Part shown: positions 8,953 through 47,200 of the stretch, in pieces
Numbering within the stretch: the first letter of the stretch is position 1
Layout of the letters: every line of letters begins with the position of its first letter
Source of the DNA: Marinomonas communis
Lineage (GTDB): Bacteria; Pseudomonadota; Gammaproteobacteria; Pseudomonadales; Marinomonadaceae
Assembly (NCBI RefSeq): GCF_004363305.1
Contig: NZ_SNZA01000004.1
Coordinates: forward strand, 124,001 to 188,000
Direction of reading: 5' to 3'
DNA: 64,000 nt
Program-made: the position numbers and the translations under genes
The notes under the pieces: generated by a model
Seen by the model: only the letters and a program-made list of their open reading frames with translations
Database searches by the model: none
What the model was told of the DNA's origin: nothing

Positions 8953-9522
8953 TTAACGGTTTAACAAAACATAGAACTGCGCTAACCACGCAGGATGGGC
9001 TGGCCACGCAGGCGCTGTGACTAAGTTACCATCGGTCACCGCCTGATCCACTGGGATATCAGCGTAGACACCATTCGCGAGTTCCACTTCTGGCTGGCAA
9101 GCTGGGTACGCGGAACATTGCTTACCTTCCAACACACCTGCTGCCGCCAACAACTGAGCACCGTGACAAATCGCCGCAACTGGCTTATCCGCTTTAAAGA
9201 AATGCTGCACCATGGCAATCACGTCTTTATTTAAACGCAAATACTCCGGTGCACGACCGCCAGGAATCACCAAAGCATCATAGTCTTCCGCCTTGATATC
9301 ACTAAAGGTCGCATTTAACGTGAAACGATGACCAGGCTTTTCGGTGTAAGTCTGATCCCCTTCAAAGTCGTGAATCGCCGTTGCAACAGAATCACCAACT
9401 TTCTTATCAGGACACACCGCATCCACCTGATGGCCGACACTTAACAACGCCTGAAACGGCACCATAGTTTCGTAATCTTCCGTGAAATCACCCGTGATCA
9501 TTAAGATTTTTTTATTAGACAT
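8953..9522 (-). CDS. DJ-1/PfpI family protein
   Basis: Cytoplasmic class I glutamine amidotransferase-like protein of 189 residues. The nucleophile elbow [13 protein letters not shown] carries the conserved Cys, and [15 protein letters not shown] and the N-terminal [16 protein letters not shown] carry the acidic residue of the active site. Close relatives are annotated as PfpI proteases or as YhbO/YajL-like deglycase or chaperone proteins that act under oxidative and electrophile stress; which activity applies here cannot be told. Probably a single-gene unit; it is the last core-type gene before the cassette region. Confidence 0.9.
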
Positions 9523-9620
9523 AATGCTTCCTCTTATTGTGTTTCCAACAGAGATAAGTTGTAACAGTTAGAGTGGCGCGGGAGGTATTAACGGGTTGTT
9601 ACATGAGGGCGGGGTTGTGA

Positions 9621-9896
9621 TTATTCCAATATTTCATAGTGACGCTCAACGTTTACCGTCACCTTTCCCCAATGTGATGCTTTGACTCGTTTTTGATGTA
9701 GTTCAAAAGACTCTTTATCCGCGAACTCTTCGTAAACGTCAAAGCGAAGAGGATTGTCTGGGTTTTGAGTAACACTAAAGGTGATGCAGCCGGCTTCTTC
9801 GAGTGTGAAGCGTGTGTGGTTTACCAATTCAGCTTGTACTAATTCAAGCTCCGATTCAGGGACTAGAATAAAGCCTTTTAGAGTTACTTTTGGCAT
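9621..9896 (-). CDS. Antibiotic biosynthesis monooxygenase (ABM) domain protein
   Basis: Protein of 91 residues with one ABM ferredoxin-like domain: VTLKGFILVPESELELVQAE at the start, then ITFSVTQNP and VYEEFADKESFELHQ, the pattern of small dimeric quinol or haem-type monooxygenases. The start is the ATG ending at 9896 with AAGGA upstream; the frame reads further up into the attC site and is not used. The gene begins within 20 nt of the attC boundary, the position of a cassette gene, but no attC is visible at its 3' side, so it is either the last cassette with a lost attC or the flanking chromosomal gene. Confidence 0.85.
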   Translation of the reverse strand: MPKVTLKGFILVPESELELVQAELVNHTRFTLEEAGCITFSVTQNPDNPLRFDVYEEFADKESFELHQKRVKASHWGKVTVNVERHYEILE

Positions 9897-9911
9897 GGGG
9901 TTCCTTGTGGT

Positions 9912-9983
9912 GCATAACGCCCGCATTTGTGGCTGGTTTGTAGCGCAGCGGAAAACCAGTCCGACAACATGCGCTTGTTAGGC
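9912..9983 (-). other. Integron attC recombination site (about 72 bp)
   Basis: Read on the minus strand it starts GCCTAAC right after the NACHT gene stop and ends GGGCGTTATGC. Inside, CTGGTTT and AAACCAG form the inner 2L/2R-type arms, and a further imperfect dyad (GCGCATGTTGT / ATTTGTGG-side) extends the stem. The outer arms GCCTAAC and the GTTA-type end match attC sites of chromosomal integrons. Confidence 0.85.
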
Positions 9984-9987
9984 ATAT

Positions 9988-11775
9988 TTAAAAGGGTAAT
10001 ATTTTGTCGGTTATTTGATCTGACAGACACAATTCAGACTCCATATTTAGGACTTCTGATTTAAATGGGCTTCTCTCAAACTCTTTCGATATATATTTGC
10101 TAACTTCTCTTTGAAAGTTATTACTTTTAATAAATTTATCTATAACAATAGCAAAGTCACCATCCAGCTCTTGATAGTTCACGTAATCTCTTTCATCACA
10201 GTATGACAGGAAATCGGCAATATCTTTTTTCTTGCTGACCAGGTAGCGACCAATTGCTTTCTTTGCAAACTCAGAATAACGGACATACAAAACCGAAGAC
10301 GAGGTGTCACCCCAGTAAAACTCTTTTAGATCACCTGTTTCATCGACCCTTACTCTAGAATCGCTGCCAATCAACGTCATTAACGATTGATAATTTATAT
10401 TTATGTTAGAGTTATAATCTAAGCATAATACTTCCTTCTTGTATGGCACTAAGAAGTACTTTATATAATTTCTTTCATCTATGGTCTCTAGGAACGCTAA
10501 GGTATTTTGCCATTTTCTAAACTCATCAAACTCATTGATAACCATGCCATAAAAGCCCTGCTTTCTATCTTCGCTTAGCCTTGAGATAAAAATTGCTGCA
10601 AAATATTCTTGAATACTTTTATGCGTAAATGAATATTCGTTAAACCCATCACGAACAATCAATGCGGTTATAGTAGTTATATCATCTATTAAAAGGTCTT
10701 CAATATTGTCAGGCAACCTTTCAAGCTTTGCTGCATTGTTTAAATAGTTTTGAAACAAGTATGTTGGAAAACGTGTATTATTTTCATTTAGTGATAAAAA
10801 ACTTAATGAATCAAACAATCTTTGCATTTGGTAATCAGTTAGGCCGGCTTTCCTTTCTCTCTCAAAGCCTATTTTCATCCTGTCATGCCTGTAAAGCATA
10901 GTAGGAAAGATCAAACTATAAAATTCAGATAGGCTGTCGGGCTTAAATTGCCTTGCATTATAAGTGATAGTAAAGAGAGTCAATAGCAAAGGGGTTGTAG
11001 TAACATCGGAAATAAAGTGGCTATTAGTTAGAATATCTATTATGTTTTTTGATTGATCTACAGATTTATATAAGTGATTTACAAACTTCACCTGCGTATC
11101 AATGTGCATCGGACTTATTTTTCTTTTTGTAAAGTAGAATGAAGATCCCATTCCTGAATCTGGCCTAGAAGAAACAACAATTCTTAAATCAGGATAAGTT
11201 CTAACAATTGTTTCCAGTTCTCTCGCTGCATTGTATCTTTCATTATTTGGTATTTCATCAAAGCCATCTAAGAATAAAACTATTTTTCCAGACTCAGCCA
11301 AGAATTCAAAAAGCGCATTATCTAGTTTTACACCTAAATCACAAATTGCATCCATTAGCTCGTCTTTGAGCTTTTTCTCATACTTTAAGTTTCTAAATTC
11401 GATAAAAATTGGGATGAAAGCACTACCTGAACCTTCTCGGATACATAATTTTCTGAGATACAGGGACTTACCTTGGCCTGGGCCTCCTTCCACTAAAATA
11501 TGCTTACCACCAAGCTGACCAAAGGAGTCTATCTTTTCCCCATTAAAGAGCACAGCCTCTTCAAAAAATATTTCATTCAAGTCGACGATTGAATCAGGGT
11601 TCAATATCGTCTTAACCTGCCCAATTCTACTAACGTTATTCTTAAAGAATTCGAGCTTTTGGATAGCAAAGGCTTCAGATACTTTCTCTTTTATTTTTCC
11701 TTTTGCAGCTTTGACAAGCTCGTCAACTATCCCGTCTAGGCCTCCTGTTGCTTTCTTAATTATATCTTCAATCAT
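9988..11775 (-). CDS. NACHT-domain STAND NTPase, probable antiphage protein, carried in an integron cassette
   Basis: Protein of 595 residues. An N-terminal helical region (1-85) precedes a NACHT module: Walker A GGPGQGKS at 97-104, Walker B IVLFLDGFDE at 165-174 with the small residue plus acidic pattern typical of NACHT, sensor-1 VVSSRPD at 200-206, and the winged-helix region with FTHKSIQEYFAA near 400. The C-terminus (about 430-595) has no recognised repeat and may be the sensor. Bacterial NACHT proteins (bNACHT) are known defence STAND proteins that act in abortive-type immunity. GGAG stands 5 nt before the ATG. AT-rich codon use and flanking attC sites show it as a mobile cassette; 1.8 kb is large for a cassette. 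Confidence 0.88.
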   Translation of the reverse strand: MIEDIIKKATGGLDGIVDELVKAAKGKIKEKVSEAFAIQKLEFFKNNVSRIGQVKTILNPDSIVDLNEIFFEEAVLFNGEKIDSFGQLGGKHILVEGGPGQGKSLYLRKLCIREGSGSAFIPIFIEFRNLKYEKKLKDELMDAICDLGVKLDNALFEFLAESGKIVLFLDGFDEIPNNERYNAARELETIVRTYPDLRIVVSSRPDSGMGSSFYFTKRKISPMHIDTQVKFVNHLYKSVDQSKNIIDILTNSHFISDVTTTPLLLTLFTITYNARQFKPDSLSEFYSLIFPTMLYRHDRMKIGFERERKAGLTDYQMQRLFDSLSFLSLNENNTRFPTYLFQNYLNNAAKLERLPDNIEDLLIDDITTITALIVRDGFNEYSFTHKSIQEYFAAIFISRLSEDRKQGFYGMVINEFDEFRKWQNTLAFLETIDERNYIKYFLVPYKKEVLCLDYNSNININYQSLMTLIGSDSRVRVDETGDLKEFYWGDTSSSVLYVRYSEFAKKAIGRYLVSKKKDIADFLSYCDERDYVNYQELDGDFAIVIDKFIKSNNFQREVSKYISKEFERSPFKSEVLNMESELCLSDQITDKILPF

Positions 11776-11805
11776 AACGACTCCATGTTAGTTAAGAATT
11801 ATACA

Positions 11806-11934
11806 GCCTAACGTCCGCTTAAGGGGCGGGCAACGCATTACAACTTAACTCAAACACAACAAACGCAACTACTGAGGCTTAATGGGACTGGAAACGCCAC
11901 GCATTGACAGTCCCTCTTGAAGCGTTTGTTAGGC
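11806..11934 (-). other. VCR-like integron attC site (129 bp)
   Basis: Bounded by GCCTAAC and GTTAGGC at both ends. On the minus strand it runs GCCTAACAAACGCTTCAAGA, then GGGACTGT, GCGTGGCGTTTCCAGTCCCA, TTGTTGTGTTTGAGTT and ends GCCCCTTAAGCGGACGTTAG. This is close along its whole length to the Vibrio cholerae repeat as I recall it, including the inner GGGACTG / CAGTCCC pairing. It belongs to the HExxH-gene cassette, whose stop codon lies 14 bp upstream in gene direction. Confidence 0.95.
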
Positions 11935-11947
11935 ATTTACTCAAAAG

Positions 11948-12502
11948 CTATCTCATTTTGGGTTTTGATAATAATTGAGAAATGACGTCTGAACTTAAGT
12001 CGGGGTTTTCACTATTTAATACAGAGCTATTGATTGCATTAAAACCACCACAGCTCAAACGACAATTTTTTGCTATTTGATAAGGATTATCACCCAAGCT
12101 ATCGAATAAGCGTAATGCTATTTGATACGAAGTACCATCTGGCAGGTCAGTGATATCAAAGCCATACATACGCATCATATCCAATGAGAACCTCACTGCG
12201 GCGCCCTCCTCTAGCAAAACAGTTTGTTGCCCACCATGCTGATCAAGCAAATGCACAGTTTCATGAGCTAGATGGTAAACAGCCAATCTCCAATTACTTT
12301 TTGCGTTATCCCCTAACTCCGCAAAAGCACCATCTTTAGTTGGTGTATATCTGATATGTGGTCCTTCAGGGTCCCAAGATGGTTGATAGATCTTTTTTGA
12401 CTGGTCGCGCTTACCAAATAGATTTTCCGCTTTAGCAAGTAACTCTAGTTGTAACTGCCAAAGAGCACTTGCATCCGTTGGTTTTACATTAATAAAATCC
12501 AC
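11948..12502 (-). CDS. Integron cassette protein with HExxH motif (putative zinc metallopeptidase-like)
   Basis: Protein of 184 residues that I do not recognise as a named family. Residues 80-84 are HETVH, in the context LAVYHLAHETVHLLDQHGG, and an acidic pair follows at 98-99 (LLEEGAAVRFS). This is the layout of a gluzincin-type zinc site, HExxH then a downstream Glu. Metal binding and proteolysis are inferences. The start is a GTG without a strong ribosome site, as is usual in cassettes where the gene starts close to the recombination point. The VCR-like attC is directly behind it. No signal peptide, no membrane segment. Confidence 0.75.
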   Translation of the reverse strand: MDFINVKPTDASALWQLQLELLAKAENLFGKRDQSKKIYQPSWDPEGPHIRYTPTKDGAFAELGDNAKSNWRLAVYHLAHETVHLLDQHGGQQTVLLEEGAAVRFSLDMMRMYGFDITDLPDGTSYQIALRLFDSLGDNPYQIAKNCRLSCGGFNAINSSVLNSENPDLSSDVISQLLSKPKMR

Positions 12503-12531
12503 TTATTAATCCGTAACAATTTTATTGGTAT

Positions 12532-12673
12532 GCCTAACATTTTAATAGTGCGCATGCTCGTTTACGCAGTACCAGAGAACCTAAATAATTCCCTCTAACA
12601 ATCTGTTTTAACAACACTTTTTAAATTTATCCAATAACAACTCAAGACACAAAATCGAGCATGCGCGTTATAT
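12532..12673 (-). other. Probable degenerate attC site
   Basis: Has GCCTAAC at one end and GTTATAT at the other. An 11-bp perfect dyad GCGCATGCTCG / CGAGCATGCGC lies just inside both ends, about 95 bp apart. Length and layout fit an attC whose outer box on one side has decayed. It precedes the HExxH gene in gene direction, as the attC of an upstream cassette would. Confidence 0.55.
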
Positions 12674-12884
12674 CATTTGTCCACAGCACGTTATTCTAGC
12701 TGTCGTATTGCTTAATTATTGATCTTAATACACTTTTGTAGGCGCTTCTATGACAATGCAAGAAACTGAATAGCATTAAAATCATAAAAACACGCACCGT
12801 CTTGAACAAACCAAAAATCAACTGGATATTTGATCAGCTGTTAACGCGGTTGGTAAGTACCGAAGCTGATGAATAGCATCCTAG

Positions 12885-12930
12885 AGATTGCCTAGTTTGT
12901 AGACTGATCCCTCGCACAGCGAGGTCGTAC
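12885..12930. repeat. REP-like repeat, type A copy 1
   Basis: 46 bp, 42 identical to copy 2 at 13026-13071. Each contains a hairpin (CCTCGCACAGCGAGG) followed by TCGTAC. The block between 12674 and 13121 has no gene; it holds these copies and one type B hairpin. Confidence 0.85.
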
Positions 12931-12970
12931 AACTTTGGGATTTCGATTTATCGTAGCACTGCGAGTTTGG

Positions 12971-12987
12971 TCGCGGGTGCAACCCGC
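12971..12987. repeat. REP-like hairpin, type B
   Basis: TCGCGGGTGCAACCCGCTC contains GCGGGT-GCA-ACCCGC and resembles the REP elements of Pseudomonas-like genomes (GTAGGAGCGGG type). It lies between the two type A copies, as in REP doublets. Confidence 0.7.
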
Positions 12988-13025
12988 TCATACAAAAGCC
13001 AGAGCTGCTCGTTGATGTCCTAGAA

Positions 13026-13071
13026 AGATTGCCTAGTTTGCAGGCTGATCCCTCGCGCAGCGAGGTCCTAC
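13026..13071. repeat. REP-like repeat, type A copy 2
   Basis: Second copy of the 46-bp unit, hairpin CCTCGCGCAGCGAGG then TCCTAC. It has the same orientation as copy 1, 141 bp apart. The spacing and the hairpins suggest a REP-type element. Confidence 0.85.
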
Positions 13072-13121
13072 GAGGCGGTTGTGTGGTAGTATGCGGGGCT
13101 TGTTTTGGGAGGTAGTTGGTT

Positions 13122-13391
13122 ATGATTGAGAAGCAGGATTTGCTGGATATTGCGCGTCAGAAGATGCCGTTTGGTAAGTATGAGGGTCGGTTGATTGTGG
13201 ATCTGCCGGAGGAGTATTTGCTGTGGTTTAATCATAAAGGCTGGCCGGAGGGTAAGTTAGGTCGTTGGTTGCAGTTGGCGTTGGAGGTTAAGGTGAATGG
13301 TTTAGAGAAGATCGTTGAGCCGTTGAAACTGCCCGAGACACCGAAGCCGAAGCAGCCTAAGGTTCAAATTCGCTTTGATGAGATGGACTGA
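13122..13391 (+). CDS. DUF3820 family protein
   Basis: Small cytoplasmic protein of 89 residues. The motif MPFGKYEGRLIVDLPEEYLL at about 14-33 is the hallmark of DUF3820 (also called the QSregVF family), whose function is not established. A Pro/Lys-rich tail follows (LPETPKPKQPK). GGGAGG stands about 9 nt before the ATG at 13122, which decides the start. It is a stand-alone gene directly after the REP-like block. Confidence 0.9.
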   Translation: MIEKQDLLDIARQKMPFGKYEGRLIVDLPEEYLLWFNHKGWPEGKLGRWLQLALEVKVNGLEKIVEPLKLPETPKPKQPKVQIRFDEMD

Positions 13392-38796: not shown

Positions 38797-40008
38797 ATGG
38801 GAACGATCAACGTCAGAGCAGGCAAACTGCAAATGGATTTTCGCTACAACGGCGAACGGTATCGAGAGCAAACGAAACTTCCTGATACACCTGCTAACCG
38901 AAAACGTGTTAAACAAATCCTCGACCGGATTGAGGCTGAAATCACTCTAGGTACATTCAAGTACTGGGAGTATTTCCCCAAAAGCAAAAAGGGAGAAATG
39001 CTTAAGGCCAATACGGATCTTGCTATCCAGCATCATGCAAAAGCAAATCAAACAACACCGACTTTTGCAGAGTTCGCTGAGCTATGGTTTTCAGAGAAGA
39101 CTATCGAGTGGCGCTCTTCATACACAAAAACTGTCCGAGCCGTTATGACAGCGTATCTACTAGACCATTTTGGGAATGAAGAGATCAGCAGCATCACTAA
39201 AGCTGACGTATTGAATTTTCGCTCAACTCTCGCCAAAGATCCGAAGCGAAAAAACAGCCCTCTTAAACCAGCATCGGTTAATAAAATTATGACGCCTTTA
39301 AGAATGATCTTGAATGAAGCCGCTGATCGATACGAGTTTACATCGCCGTGGAAAGGAATCAAATCCTTGAAAGTTAACAAGTCAGATATTGAGCCTTTTT
39401 CTCTTGAAGAAGTTAATCTCATCATCAGCAATGTGAGACAAGATTTCAGACCTTATTTTGTCACACGTTTTTTTACAGGGATGCGAACAGGCGAAATAGA
39501 TGGCTTGAAATGGCAATACGTAGACTTCGAAAAACGCCTTATTCTCGTCCGTGAGACTTGGGTAAACAACGAGTTTACTTACACCAAGACCGATGGCTCA
39601 CAGCGAGATATACAAATGTCACAGCCGGTATTCGATGCCCTTCAAGCCCAGTACAAAATAACAGGATCTAAAGAACTTGTTTTCTATAGTGCAGACGGTT
39701 TACCACTAAGGCACGATACGGTTACAAAACGCGTTTGGCATCCGCTGCTCAGACTCCTTGGTCTCAAGTCTCGACGTCCTTATCAAACGCGACATACCGC
39801 TGCGACGTTATGGTTAGCTTCTGGTGAAAACCCTGAATGGATTGCTCGTCAAATGGGTCATACAACGACAGAGATGCTATTTCGTGTTTACTCACGCTAC
39901 GTGCCGAACCTCACTCGACGAGATGGCTCAGCCTTCGAACGCCTTTTGAAATCTGAATACACAGCTGCTATGGATGACGAACAGGCAGGAGGCATTAAGA
40001 ATGACTGA
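38797..40008 (+). CDS. int: Tyrosine-type site-specific integrase (DUF3596 arm-binding type)
   Basis: Protein of 403 residues. N-terminal arm-type DNA-binding domain (1-95; GTINVRAGKLQMDFRYNGER, the DUF3596 pattern), SAM-like core-binding domain (about 95-195), catalytic domain (about 205-385). Box I: FTGMRTGEIDGLKW with the first Arg. Box II: PYQTRHTAATLWL, with Tyr where the His often stands, as usual in this subgroup. Then RQMGHTTTEMLFRVYSRYV with the His and the nucleophilic Tyr. Complete and likely active. It is the expected enzyme for integration at the tRNA-Arg gene. AAGGAG precedes the ATG. Confidence 0.95.
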   Translation: MGTINVRAGKLQMDFRYNGERYREQTKLPDTPANRKRVKQILDRIEAEITLGTFKYWEYFPKSKKGEMLKANTDLAIQHHAKANQTTPTFAEFAELWFSEKTIEWRSSYTKTVRAVMTAYLLDHFGNEEISSITKADVLNFRSTLAKDPKRKNSPLKPASVNKIMTPLRMILNEAADRYEFTSPWKGIKSLKVNKSDIEPFSLEEVNLIISNVRQDFRPYFVTRFFTGMRTGEIDGLKWQYVDFEKRLILVRETWVNNEFTYTKTDGSQRDIQMSQPVFDALQAQYKITGSKELVFYSADGLPLRHDTVTKRVWHPLLRLLGLKSRRPYQTRHTAATLWLASGENPEWIARQMGHTTTEMLFRVYSRYVPNLTRRDGSAFERLLKSEYTAAMDDEQAGGIKND

Positions 40009-44282: not shown

Positions 44283-47200
44283 TCAATATTCAAAGGCTTT
44301 ATCTAATCTTTCGCCTAAAAGATTAGGCATATTTCAAGATTTTGAAACCACCTTAGATGAAACTCAGCACATATATTTCATGCACCTTATGATCTGGTTG
44401 TCTTCTGATGAAAGTCGCGAATCGAAGCTTATCAAAGACGGTTACCCGAAGGTCAAGCGACAACCTAGGCAGCATAGACAACCTAAGTTTAATTCATCAA
44501 ACTTGCTGATCAGATTTATAAATGCGCATGAAGCTTTGATTGACGACAAAGTCGAAGTTTCAAAAATGCTACGCGGACTGGTTATCCATTTAAAGAATAT
44601 TGAAGAAATGACGCCAGAAACGCCACTTCCAGCCTTGGTGCAAAAGCTTGATCGTGAGCCAGGCCGTTTAACTCCCAACGTATTTAAACATTACATTTCG
44701 AAATATTCTCAACTAGAAGCTGCACTAACAGAATCACTGAAATCAGGAAACTGCTCTGAAGAAGTCGTCAGAGGCCAAGTTGTGCTGTCAGCAGCTCTCT
44801 ATGGAGGATTAATATCCATTGAGGGGTTATATGCACTCATTTTAAATGCTCCAAAGGGGCCGATTAGCATAAGGAACCAGTCTGCTTGGTCTCTAGATCT
44901 AACCTTAAGTGGCTACTATTACGCAGAACCAAGGGTTTGGTACCCCGATCTTTTGACGGAAACACTTCTATTGAATAAAAAGCTTGGGGTATTAGACGAG
45001 AGTACTGGGAACAAAAGAGATATGGCTCAAAAAGTTTCATCTTTCGTTCAAGCGCTCTTGTCTGATCTACCAAAGGATGTTCGCAAATCACTGTCTCTAA
45101 AGAGACAGCAGTTTGAAAAGTGCCTCGATATGATTGCTGTTGGCTACGATATTTATATTCCTCCTTTCATCACCAGATATGCACAAGGCGGATTAGTCAG
45201 CCATTCACTGAAATCATCAGCACTGAGCCGAATAGCGGGGCACCAGATTAGGCTAGACCTTGAATCAACTTTTGATAGCAACTGGGCTCCAACAGATCAA
45301 GATTTGAATTACACAACTAAAGAGACGTGTTCTAACACATACTCTGAAATCAGTGAGGAGTCACAAGCTCTAAATTGGTCATGGATCAAAGGAGAGATTA
45401 TTCATGACCATTCCACTGATCAGTTAGCAGAGAGCCTAGAGTCCCTGATGAGTAGCAGAGACTCACAGATGTCTCACATCCAAAAGCTCGTGATCATGTG
45501 GGGGATAACGCTATCAAAAAATGGAAGTTCAAGTTTCGTAAACCTGCGGCCAGGCCGGATAAAAACCATGATTTCTTCCATTGGTTCTCGCCTTTGCCCT
45601 CTTATTCAAGAGAGGGATGTCACTTTATACAATGCAGAAGAACTGGAGGACTTATATGAGGACTTATTAGGAACCGTTAGCTCTCAAAGTTTAAAGCGAA
45701 AACTAGCAAATATCCTAGCTCGATTTCAGTCATACCTAGAGCGTGAGCACTACGTTGATGAAATTGATTCTAGAGAAGTATTCGGTGTACAGAACTCACC
45801 AATCCCCGTTGATGCCAACATTATCCTTATTGATGAGTACCATCACATCCTAACCACGCTTGAAGGTATTTCTGAACTTGAGTTAGCGCCGGATCTCAAC
45901 ATAATAGTTCGTTTAATTTTCATTCTCGGATATCGATGTGGTCTAAGGAGAAGTGAGGGCCTCAAGTTAAGGTTGGACGATATTCAAGGAGATGACGACC
46001 TTTACTTACTCATCAGACCACACATAGATCGGACTTTGAAAACAAACAACGCAAAGAGAATTTTCAAACTCGATCAGTTCTTAGGTGAAAATGAGCTCGT
46101 ATTTTTGAAGTCTTGGCTGCAAAAGAGAAGAGATGCCTATCATCATAAAGAATCAAACTCACCATTCCTCTTTTATTTAACTGGCAACAATACTCCATGT
46201 ATTGATGGCGATTCAGTATTTCCAATCATCCATAGCGTCATGCGAGCTGTTTGTAGAGATAACTCCCTCCGTTATCACCATCTACGACATTCATTTGCGA
46301 CTCTACTATTGCTGAAGCTAATGCTGAATGACAAATCCTCTTTAAGCATTTTTGAGGCGTATCCACAAACACGGGAATGGATTAGAAACAGCGAAGGGCT
46401 CAAGAAACATCTATTTGGGACTTTAACCACCACTAAAAAGAGTCTGTATGCACTGTCAATGCTTATGGGGCATGCCTCCCCTGAAACAACACTAGAACAC
46501 TATAGCCATCTGCTAGATTACATGGCCCGTGAATTGATTGAAGAAAGGCTGAAGCCAACCAGCGAACAACTCGCGCTAGCATCTGACCAATCAATTTGCA
46601 CCATCTATCGCTGGTTAGAGTCTGGAAAAAATAAGTACAGAGAAAATCTTCGTAAAAAGTATCTTAATGGCGGCCTAAAAACAGCATCAATACCACCCGT
46701 AAAGGCAATCAGAAACTTTAGTCTTGAACTTACTAATAGTAATCTTGAGAAAGAATTTGACCAGTGCCGTAAGGTTCTTTTCAAGCTAATACAGAGTCCC
46801 AATAAAGAAGACAAGCTGACGCAGCTATCAAATAGTACAGGGGTAGCTAAGCCCGATATTGAGACGTGGCGGAACAACCTATATTCTCTTTTAGGTACAG
46901 ATCCTCATAAGTTCGGTATGTCGAGCGCTAAAAAGATCAATTTGGAAATTTACAACGGCGAAACACTTCCTCTACCAGCACAGCCCAGAAAAACAGTTCA
47001 AGATCGCGCAGCATACCTTAGCCTGCTTACATCGCTTGATGAGATGAGTAAACATCAGCCTGAGAAGCTACAAATACTTTTAAACGGGTTCCAGCAATAT
47101 ACTCAAAAGCGAAATTACTTAATGAGATTCACAAGTATTGAAGATGCAAAACCTATAATCGAAGTACTCTCCTTACTCAAAACTGATAATGTCGCCCTGA

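What the first reader, a model, noticed from the sequence alone, without database searches (positions are those of the whole stretch)
9621..12673. Short integron cassette array without integrase (attC cluster)
Two clear attC sites (9912-9983, 11806-11934) and one probable, degenerate one (12532-12673) alternate with minus-strand genes in the order attC - HExxH gene - VCR-like attC - NACHT gene - attC - ABM gene. No intI gene or attI-like site is seen within the window. This is the layout of a CALIN, a cluster of attC sites lacking an integrase, in a genome that is not clearly a Vibrio.
Basis: partly seen in the sequence, partly recalled or inferred. Interest (0 to 1): 0.78.

Follow-up and report, generated by a model that had tools for sequence, protein, structure and literature searches.

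The report
Integron port that lost its integrase
A short string of swappable genes, one of them a probable anti-phage gene, sits at an integron docking site whose own enzyme gene is gone, and related bacteria carry many such enzyme-less docking sites scattered over their chromosomes, which suggests that one enzyme may serve them from a distance.

Summary
The cassette array is real, but one site was misread. Models built without this genome confirm both main attC sites: 9912-9983 (33.9 bits) and 11806-11934 (108 bits). No integron integrase is found in the assembly. The third site (12532-12673) is an attI, not a degenerate attC: 85.5 bits to a genus attI model and 26 of 28 letters of the published Shewanella-type attI. 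A LexA-like box lies behind it, and intI is missing. So this is an integron that kept attI and lost intI. In the genus such attI sites are dispersed: 63 copies of at least 45 bits in 16 of 17 genomes, 6 of them beside a full intI. The same attI in species G003 holds a different array. The NACHT gene is absent from 46 of 47 other genus genomes, close relative G015 included; the exception is 30% identical. Best reading: cassettes were captured here by an integrase acting in trans. The anatomy is secure; trans action and the spread of attI are inferred. One published precedent is a Shewanella prophage; my searches listed no genus-wide case.

The parts
12532..12662 (-). attI; crossover core GTT at 12536-12538, cassettes begin towards lower coordinates
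   Evidence: R2 85.5 bits at 12535-12662; 26 of 28 letters of the published Shewanella-type attI; 94% over 34 nt to the site between integrase gene and first cassette in a Shewanella plasmid
12663..12837 (-). rest of the intI-attI leader, with a LexA-like box CTG-N10-CAG at 12822-12837
   Evidence: 84% identity over 305 columns to the leader of the intact intI of G003:C5; box found; that such boxes regulate intI is recalled
12838..12845 (.). junction where intI is missing
   Evidence: leader ends at 12837 and repeats begin at 12845; the matching places in G003:C5 (L083 1275 and 2287) enclose a full intI
11948..12502 (-). cassette 1 gene, HExxH protein, 184 aa, function unknown
   Evidence: ORF; no Pfam, PADLOC or NCBIfam match; 70% identical to a Vibrio campbellii plasmid protein with no attC found near it
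11806..11934 (-). attC of cassette 1, Vibrio type
   Evidence: R3 108 bits, E 5.9e-31; 88.5% to Vibrio array sites
9988..11775 (-). cassette 2 gene, NACHT with C-terminal SNaCT11 domain, 595 aa
   Evidence: PF05729 and PF22716 over their cut-offs; no PADLOC match
9912..9983 (-). attC of cassette 2, short type
   Evidence: R1 33.9 bits, E 2.7e-7; 91-96% to sites in Alteromonadales and Salinivibrio records
9621..9926 (-). last gene, ABM domain; ATG at 9899 is an alternative start; no attC of its own found
   Evidence: PF03992 35.4 bits; similarity to G003 resumes at 9604
8953..9522 (-). left flanking gene, DJ-1/PfpI family, shared with G003 and G029
   Evidence: synteny
13116..13391 (+). right flanking gene, QSregVF_b family, shared with relatives

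Best explanation
This is an integron whose attI and cassette array survive and whose integrase gene is gone. In this genus attI has been copied to many chromosomal places, mostly without intI. Cassettes are inserted at such orphan attI sites by an IntI protein encoded elsewhere in the cell (G003 has one) or arriving on mobile DNA, by attI x attC recombination at G^TT. Shown by sequence: the attI, two attC, two oriented cassettes, no intI found, many orphan attI with arrays, different arrays at the same attI in two species. Inferred: that the integrase acted in trans, that the NACHT cassette came after the local intI was broken, and that the site still works. How the attI copies spread is unknown. 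I put the anatomy at about 0.95 and trans capture at about 0.6.
For: attI by model and by the published sequence. attC by models built without this genome. No intI against 18 of 48 genus genomes over the cut-off. 63 strong attI in 16 of 17 genomes, 6 beside full intI. 19 of 31 attI have a same-strand attC within 3 kb on the core side, 0 of 31 an opposite-strand one. G003 has another array at the same attI and flanks. G003 and G015 share a decayed intI remnant at this locus, and G000 is nearer G015 (92.1%) than G003 (78.5%). NACHT is absent from G015 and from 46 of 47 other genus genomes.
Against: This genome now has no intI that I could find, so trans action would need a lost or incoming integrase. 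The break point in G000 differs from that in G003 and G015, so the order of events is not fixed. 12 of 31 attI have no attC found on the core side. G015's contig ends in the attI, so its array is unseen. The whole array could have been exchanged by homologous recombination between the flanks. A simple promoter scan shows nothing above chance.
Confidence: 0.65

Rival explanations
1. Plain decayed integron: the cassettes were captured while intI was still beside this attI, then intI was deleted; there is no trans action.
For: Leader and LexA-like box remain; other copies carry truncated or internally deleted intI.
Against: G003 and G015 share a decayed intI remnant at this locus, yet G000 and G003 share no cassette, and NACHT is absent from G015.
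Confidence: 0.25
2. Block replacement: the segment between the flanking genes came in as one piece from another species with its own array, by homologous recombination, so no integrase acted here.
For: Flanks of G000 and G003 are 78-86% identical and could serve as arms.
Against: Similarity to G003 ends at the attI core, and attI and leader are kept. The NACHT gene was not found in other genus genomes that could donate it, except a 30% relative.
Confidence: 0.15
3. Free CALIN made by insertion of cassettes at a secondary (attG-like) chromosomal site.
For: Two attC and no intI.
Against: The anchor scores as attI, not as attC, and keeps the intI leader.
Confidence: 0.04

Closest known systems
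[quoted passage not shown]
   Same: Two attC sites in cassette orientation and no integrase gene nearby.
   Different: Has an attI and intI leader. That paper says attI sites are not detected outside class 1 integrons, so the anchor would be missed.
Attn: CALIN with its own attI in Shewanella prophage M16-3, PMC9892861 (passages)
   Same: An array without integrase that begins with a Shewanella-type attI; window attI matches 26 of 28 letters.
   Different: There one attI-bearing CALIN beside a complete integron in one inactive prophage; here many attI per genome over a genus, some in genomes where no intI was found.
CALINs of Xanthomonas and of Shewanella, PMC12444791 and PMC9229058 (passages)
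   Same: Integrase-less arrays at several chromosomal places, with or without intI elsewhere.
   Different: attI anchors of those arrays are not described in the passages I saw.
Delta-attI gene cassettes of mobile integrons, PMC12901181 (abstract and section 5)
   Same: attI-derived sites other than the one beside intI, shown there to recombine with IntI1.
   Different: Mostly 14-18 nt remnants that close a cassette inside an array; here attI with a leader of 100 nt or more that opens arrays at separate loci.
Bacterial NACHT (bNACHT) anti-phage proteins (recalled)
   Same: NACHT domain with a short C-terminal SNaCT domain.
   Different: No PADLOC match, no NCBIfam match over a cut-off; function not tested.

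Membership tests
CALIN | at least two attC sites clustered | tested here: met
   9912-9983 and 11806-11934
CALIN | no integron integrase gene nearby | tested here: met
   no TIGR02249 match in the assembly
Complete integron | intI gene | tested here: not met
   leader runs into repeats where intI lies in G003:C5
Complete integron | attI site next to the array | tested here: met
   R2 85.5 bits, published attI 26 of 28
Shewanella-type attI | sequence of the core and preceding repeat, first cassette starting at GTT | tested here: met
Shewanella-type attI | recombination with attC by IntI | not testable with these tools
   needs an in vivo assay
   only 6.0 bits, plus strand, filters off
Gene cassette (NACHT) | same gene next to other attC sites elsewhere | tested here: met
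   Ferrimonas copy followed by a scored attC, 44.3 bits; core GTTAGG just upstream in two other copies
Gene cassette (HExxH) | same gene next to other attC sites elsewhere | tested here: inconclusive
   the only close relative found, in a Vibrio campbellii plasmid, has no attC match nearby
bNACHT anti-phage protein | NACHT domain and associated C-terminal domain | tested here: met
   PF05729, PF22716
bNACHT anti-phage protein | phage protection | not testable with these tools
   no PADLOC match

The most novel reading that the evidence does not exclude
A multi-port integron: in this genus attI itself is a dispersed, amplified docking site, so one integrase, often lost and regained, loads cassettes (anti-phage genes among them) at many chromosomal loci in trans, and arrays turn over at attI sites that have no integrase of their own.
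Probability: 0.45. Interest if true: 0.78.

Novelty: new variant of a known kind. Interest (0 to 1): 0.62.

Why it matters
Integrons are described with typically one attI close to the integrase (PMC9024848, passage). If attI is multi-copy and served in trans, the way integrons and CALINs are counted and the view of CALINs as degraded integrons would need revision, and each extra attI could be a separate loading point for cassettes. It makes trans capture directly testable and offers a route by which defence cassettes reach new loci. Because the standard finder does not detect attI outside class 1, such sites may be missed elsewhere.

Tried and rejected
Rejected: the third site as attC. Insertion at an attG-like site, because attI is there. 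REP elements as carriers of attI: the palindrome pattern was found within 3 kb of the attI at G000:C4, G003:C5 and G015:C23 only, 3 of 30 sites scanned, and the attI leaders share roughly 130 to 760 nt without a common outer end. A crude pattern-plus-duplex attC scanner gave 1.3 hits per 10 kb on block-shuffled DNA and 14 in the window, and was dropped for covariance models.

Led nowhere: RF01760, which I misremembered as attC and is traJ-II; a bare GTTAGGC pattern; NACHT plus integron literature (4 papers, none about NACHT cassettes by title); Marinomonas plus integron literature (17 papers, none of the 15 listed titles about its integrons); a search for extra attI sites that was swamped by the word attitude.

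Counts qualified. In one search I kept places with at least 45 bits and dropped weaker ones (among them four of this genome) and reverse-strand echoes; one search scored at most 150 candidates per genome, so copy numbers may be low. One search was given 19 of the 21 other-family genomes at hand; two less complete ones (G036, G045) were left out. One search used attI of at least 26 bits in the 20 stretches, one copy of places that lie in both L144 and L145, R1 hits to E 0.05 and R3 hits to E 0.01; one counted R1 hit (L147:3883-3914, 32 nt) is probably spurious, but its attI has another attC. In one search, 40 attI entries hold one place twice (L101, L108). R2 was trained on many of the copies it later scored, R1 on the five G003 sites it later scored, neither on anything from this genome. 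Relatives of the NACHT gene are not all intact: the Ferrimonas match is split into two frames and the Colwellia frame is shorter than the match.

Full report
1. Observation. I tested the repeats with models built from sites outside this genome. R1 (22 attC arms, 40 positions, 12 pairs) finds 9912-9983 with 33.9 bits, E 2.7e-7; the only other window matches are one palindrome at 15.5 bits. R3 (15 sites of one Vibrio array) finds 11806-11934 with 108 bits, E 5.9e-31, as its only window match. R1 does not report the long site. DNA comparison agrees. The long site is 88.5% identical over 130 nt to a site of Vibrio sp. HDW18, a record with 37 such places. The short one is 91-96% identical over 67-68 nt to sites in Pseudoalteromonas, Catenovulum and Salinivibrio records, one of them 3.6 kb from an annotated integron integrase. 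Both attC follow their genes in cassette orientation.

2. The third site is an attI. Its right end matches a Shewanella plasmid (94% over 34 nt) between a divergent integron integrase gene and the first cassette, and a second Shewanella plasmid likewise. It matches less closely (82% over 44 nt) the site in front of lnuF on a Proteus plasmid, which I take from recall to be class 2-like. It matches 26 of 28 letters of the Shewanella-type attI printed in PMC9892861 (passages); the next best place in the window matches 17. The 'inverted repeat' is the pair of GCATGC-type repeats about 105 nt apart seen in the other attI copies. R2, a model of 38 attI copies from other genomes of the genus, scores it 85.5 bits. 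The attC model with filters off gives 6.0 bits on the wrong strand.

3. The integrase is gone. TIGR02249 has no match in the assembly at E <= 0.001, though the search finds one over the cut-off in 18 of 48 genus genomes. In G003:C5 the same leader (84% over 305 columns) is followed by a full intI and then by REP-like repeats. In the window the leader runs straight into such repeats: 12837 and 12845 correspond to 1275 and 2287 of L083. A LexA-like box CTG-N10-CAG remains at 12822-12837; that such boxes regulate intI is recalled.

4. attI is dispersed in the genus. The 306-nt leader matches 43 of 48 genus genomes at E <= 0.001. R2 matches 17 of 17 genomes tried. I count 63 copies of at least 45 bits in 16 of them, 6 beside a full intI. 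G009, G027, G030 and G067 are single contigs with 4 to 7 such copies and no intI over the cut-off. Of 19 genomes from other families of the order 1 matches, with 2 weaker sites. Of 40 attI entries read upstream, 5 have a full intI, 8 a 5' fragment of 33-67 codons (one place listed twice) and 27 none by tblastn. Of 31 attI in 20 fetched stretches, 19 have a same-strand attC within 3 kb on the core side, none has an opposite-strand one, and 6 have one on the other side. The other 12 have no attC found on the core side; five of these lie in one G013 region. This genome has four further weak attI-like sites (26.6-30.5 bits) at C2:296298, C2:306704, C2:308612 and C3:53347. Three of the four have a downstream attC, one of these weak at 19.4 bits.

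5. Same attI, different arrays. G003 has the same flanking genes (78-86% identical) and attI, but five other cassettes with five attC between them; R1 scores all five, which were among its seeds. One encodes AbiTii (PF18864). The two arrays share only attC sequence. Similarity between the two species ends at the attI core. G029 has both flanking genes, and no match to the attI region there. G003 and G015 share a decayed intI 5' remnant here, with 71% identity over 1,174 columns. G000 is closer to G015 (92.1%) than to G003 (78.5%), and G003-G015 is 77.6%, so the local intI was probably broken before the three split. The NACHT gene is absent at E <= 1e-20 from 46 of 47 other genus genomes, G015 among them; G002 has a 30% identical relative. 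The simplest reading is insertion at an attI with no integrase of its own. G015's own array is unseen because its contig ends in the attI.

6. Cassettes. The NACHT protein carries PF05729 and PF22716. Relatives (83, 79 and 68% identical) lie in a contig labelled Nitrospinaceae (a MAG, possibly misbinned), Colwellia and Ferrimonas senticii. In the first two a GTTAGG core lies just upstream, as in the window, and by eye each of the three is followed by a different attC-like sequence. In Ferrimonas this scores as attC, 44.3 bits, starting 5 bases after the end of the match. The Ferrimonas and Colwellia frames are interrupted or shortened. It is thus a travelling cassette; anti-phage function is inferred from the domain family. 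The HExxH protein has no family match, and its Vibrio campbellii relative has no attC found nearby, so only its position makes it a cassette. ABM is last and has no attC that I could find.

7. Mechanism and limits. attI x attC recombination by IntI is established knowledge. That IntI acted here in trans is inferred. Against it: no intI is found in this genome now, the G000 break differs from that of G003 and G015, and block replacement by homologous recombination is possible. How attI spread is open. IS91-type elements (Y2_Tnp and Zn_Tnp_IS91 transposase, tyrosine recombinase) begin right after GTT of attI in G056, G060 and G005; rolling-circle copying of neighbouring DNA by such elements is an idea only.

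8. What is known. CALINs are standard, and IntegronFinder does not detect attI outside class 1 (PMC9024848, passages). One Shewanella prophage has a CALIN with its own attI (PMC9892861, passages). Delta-attI cassettes of mobile integrons recombine (PMC12901181, abstract and section 5). Xanthomonas and Shewanella CALINs: passages of PMC12444791 and PMC9229058. My searches listed no paper on genus-wide dispersed attI, but the library lacks most subscription journals. No tool named the genus. Marinomonas is my guess, from REP-like palindromes resembling those described for Marinomonas sp. MWYL1 (PMC8266576, passages) and from recall.

Noticed in passing
L166:8592, L167:3831, L169:3575 (G056, G060, G005); L166:4042: IS91-type elements with a tyrosine recombinase begin right after the GTT of attI in three genomes, and once after what looks like an attC core.
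   Followed up: partly
L078 from 2786, L120 (G008:C23, G022:C6): An IS110-family transposase gene follows directly after the attI core, which reads TAATGAAATG instead of GTT (Pfam for L078 only).
   Followed up: partly
L145:1397-9553 (G013:C1 about 3605400-3613550): Four attI in tandem on one strand with genes between them, one a pair with an HTH protein, and no attC found: blocks bounded by attI.
   Followed up: partly
whole genome G000: No XerD match over the cut-off (TIGR02225 best 40.1 bits) and no TIGR02249 match, although both searches ring in 14 of 14 control genomes. Unexplained; could be a gap of the assembly or of the search.
   Followed up: no
window 12843-13071: REP-like palindromes (CCTCG..CGAGG next to GTAGGA) abut the attI leader; similar ones follow intI in G003:C5.
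   Followed up: partly
G000:C1:1059693-1059749 (L164): A further attC (32.6 bits) with no attI match listed near it, a possible single orphan cassette.
   Followed up: no
window about 39472-39897 and 45895-46311: Two tyrosine-recombinase domains (PF00589), the second in an open frame of 1063 codons.
   Followed up: no
G000:C9:33553-33660 (L001): A traJ-II RNA match of 81.8 bits on a 49-kb contig, a possible conjugative or plasmid element.
   Followed up: no
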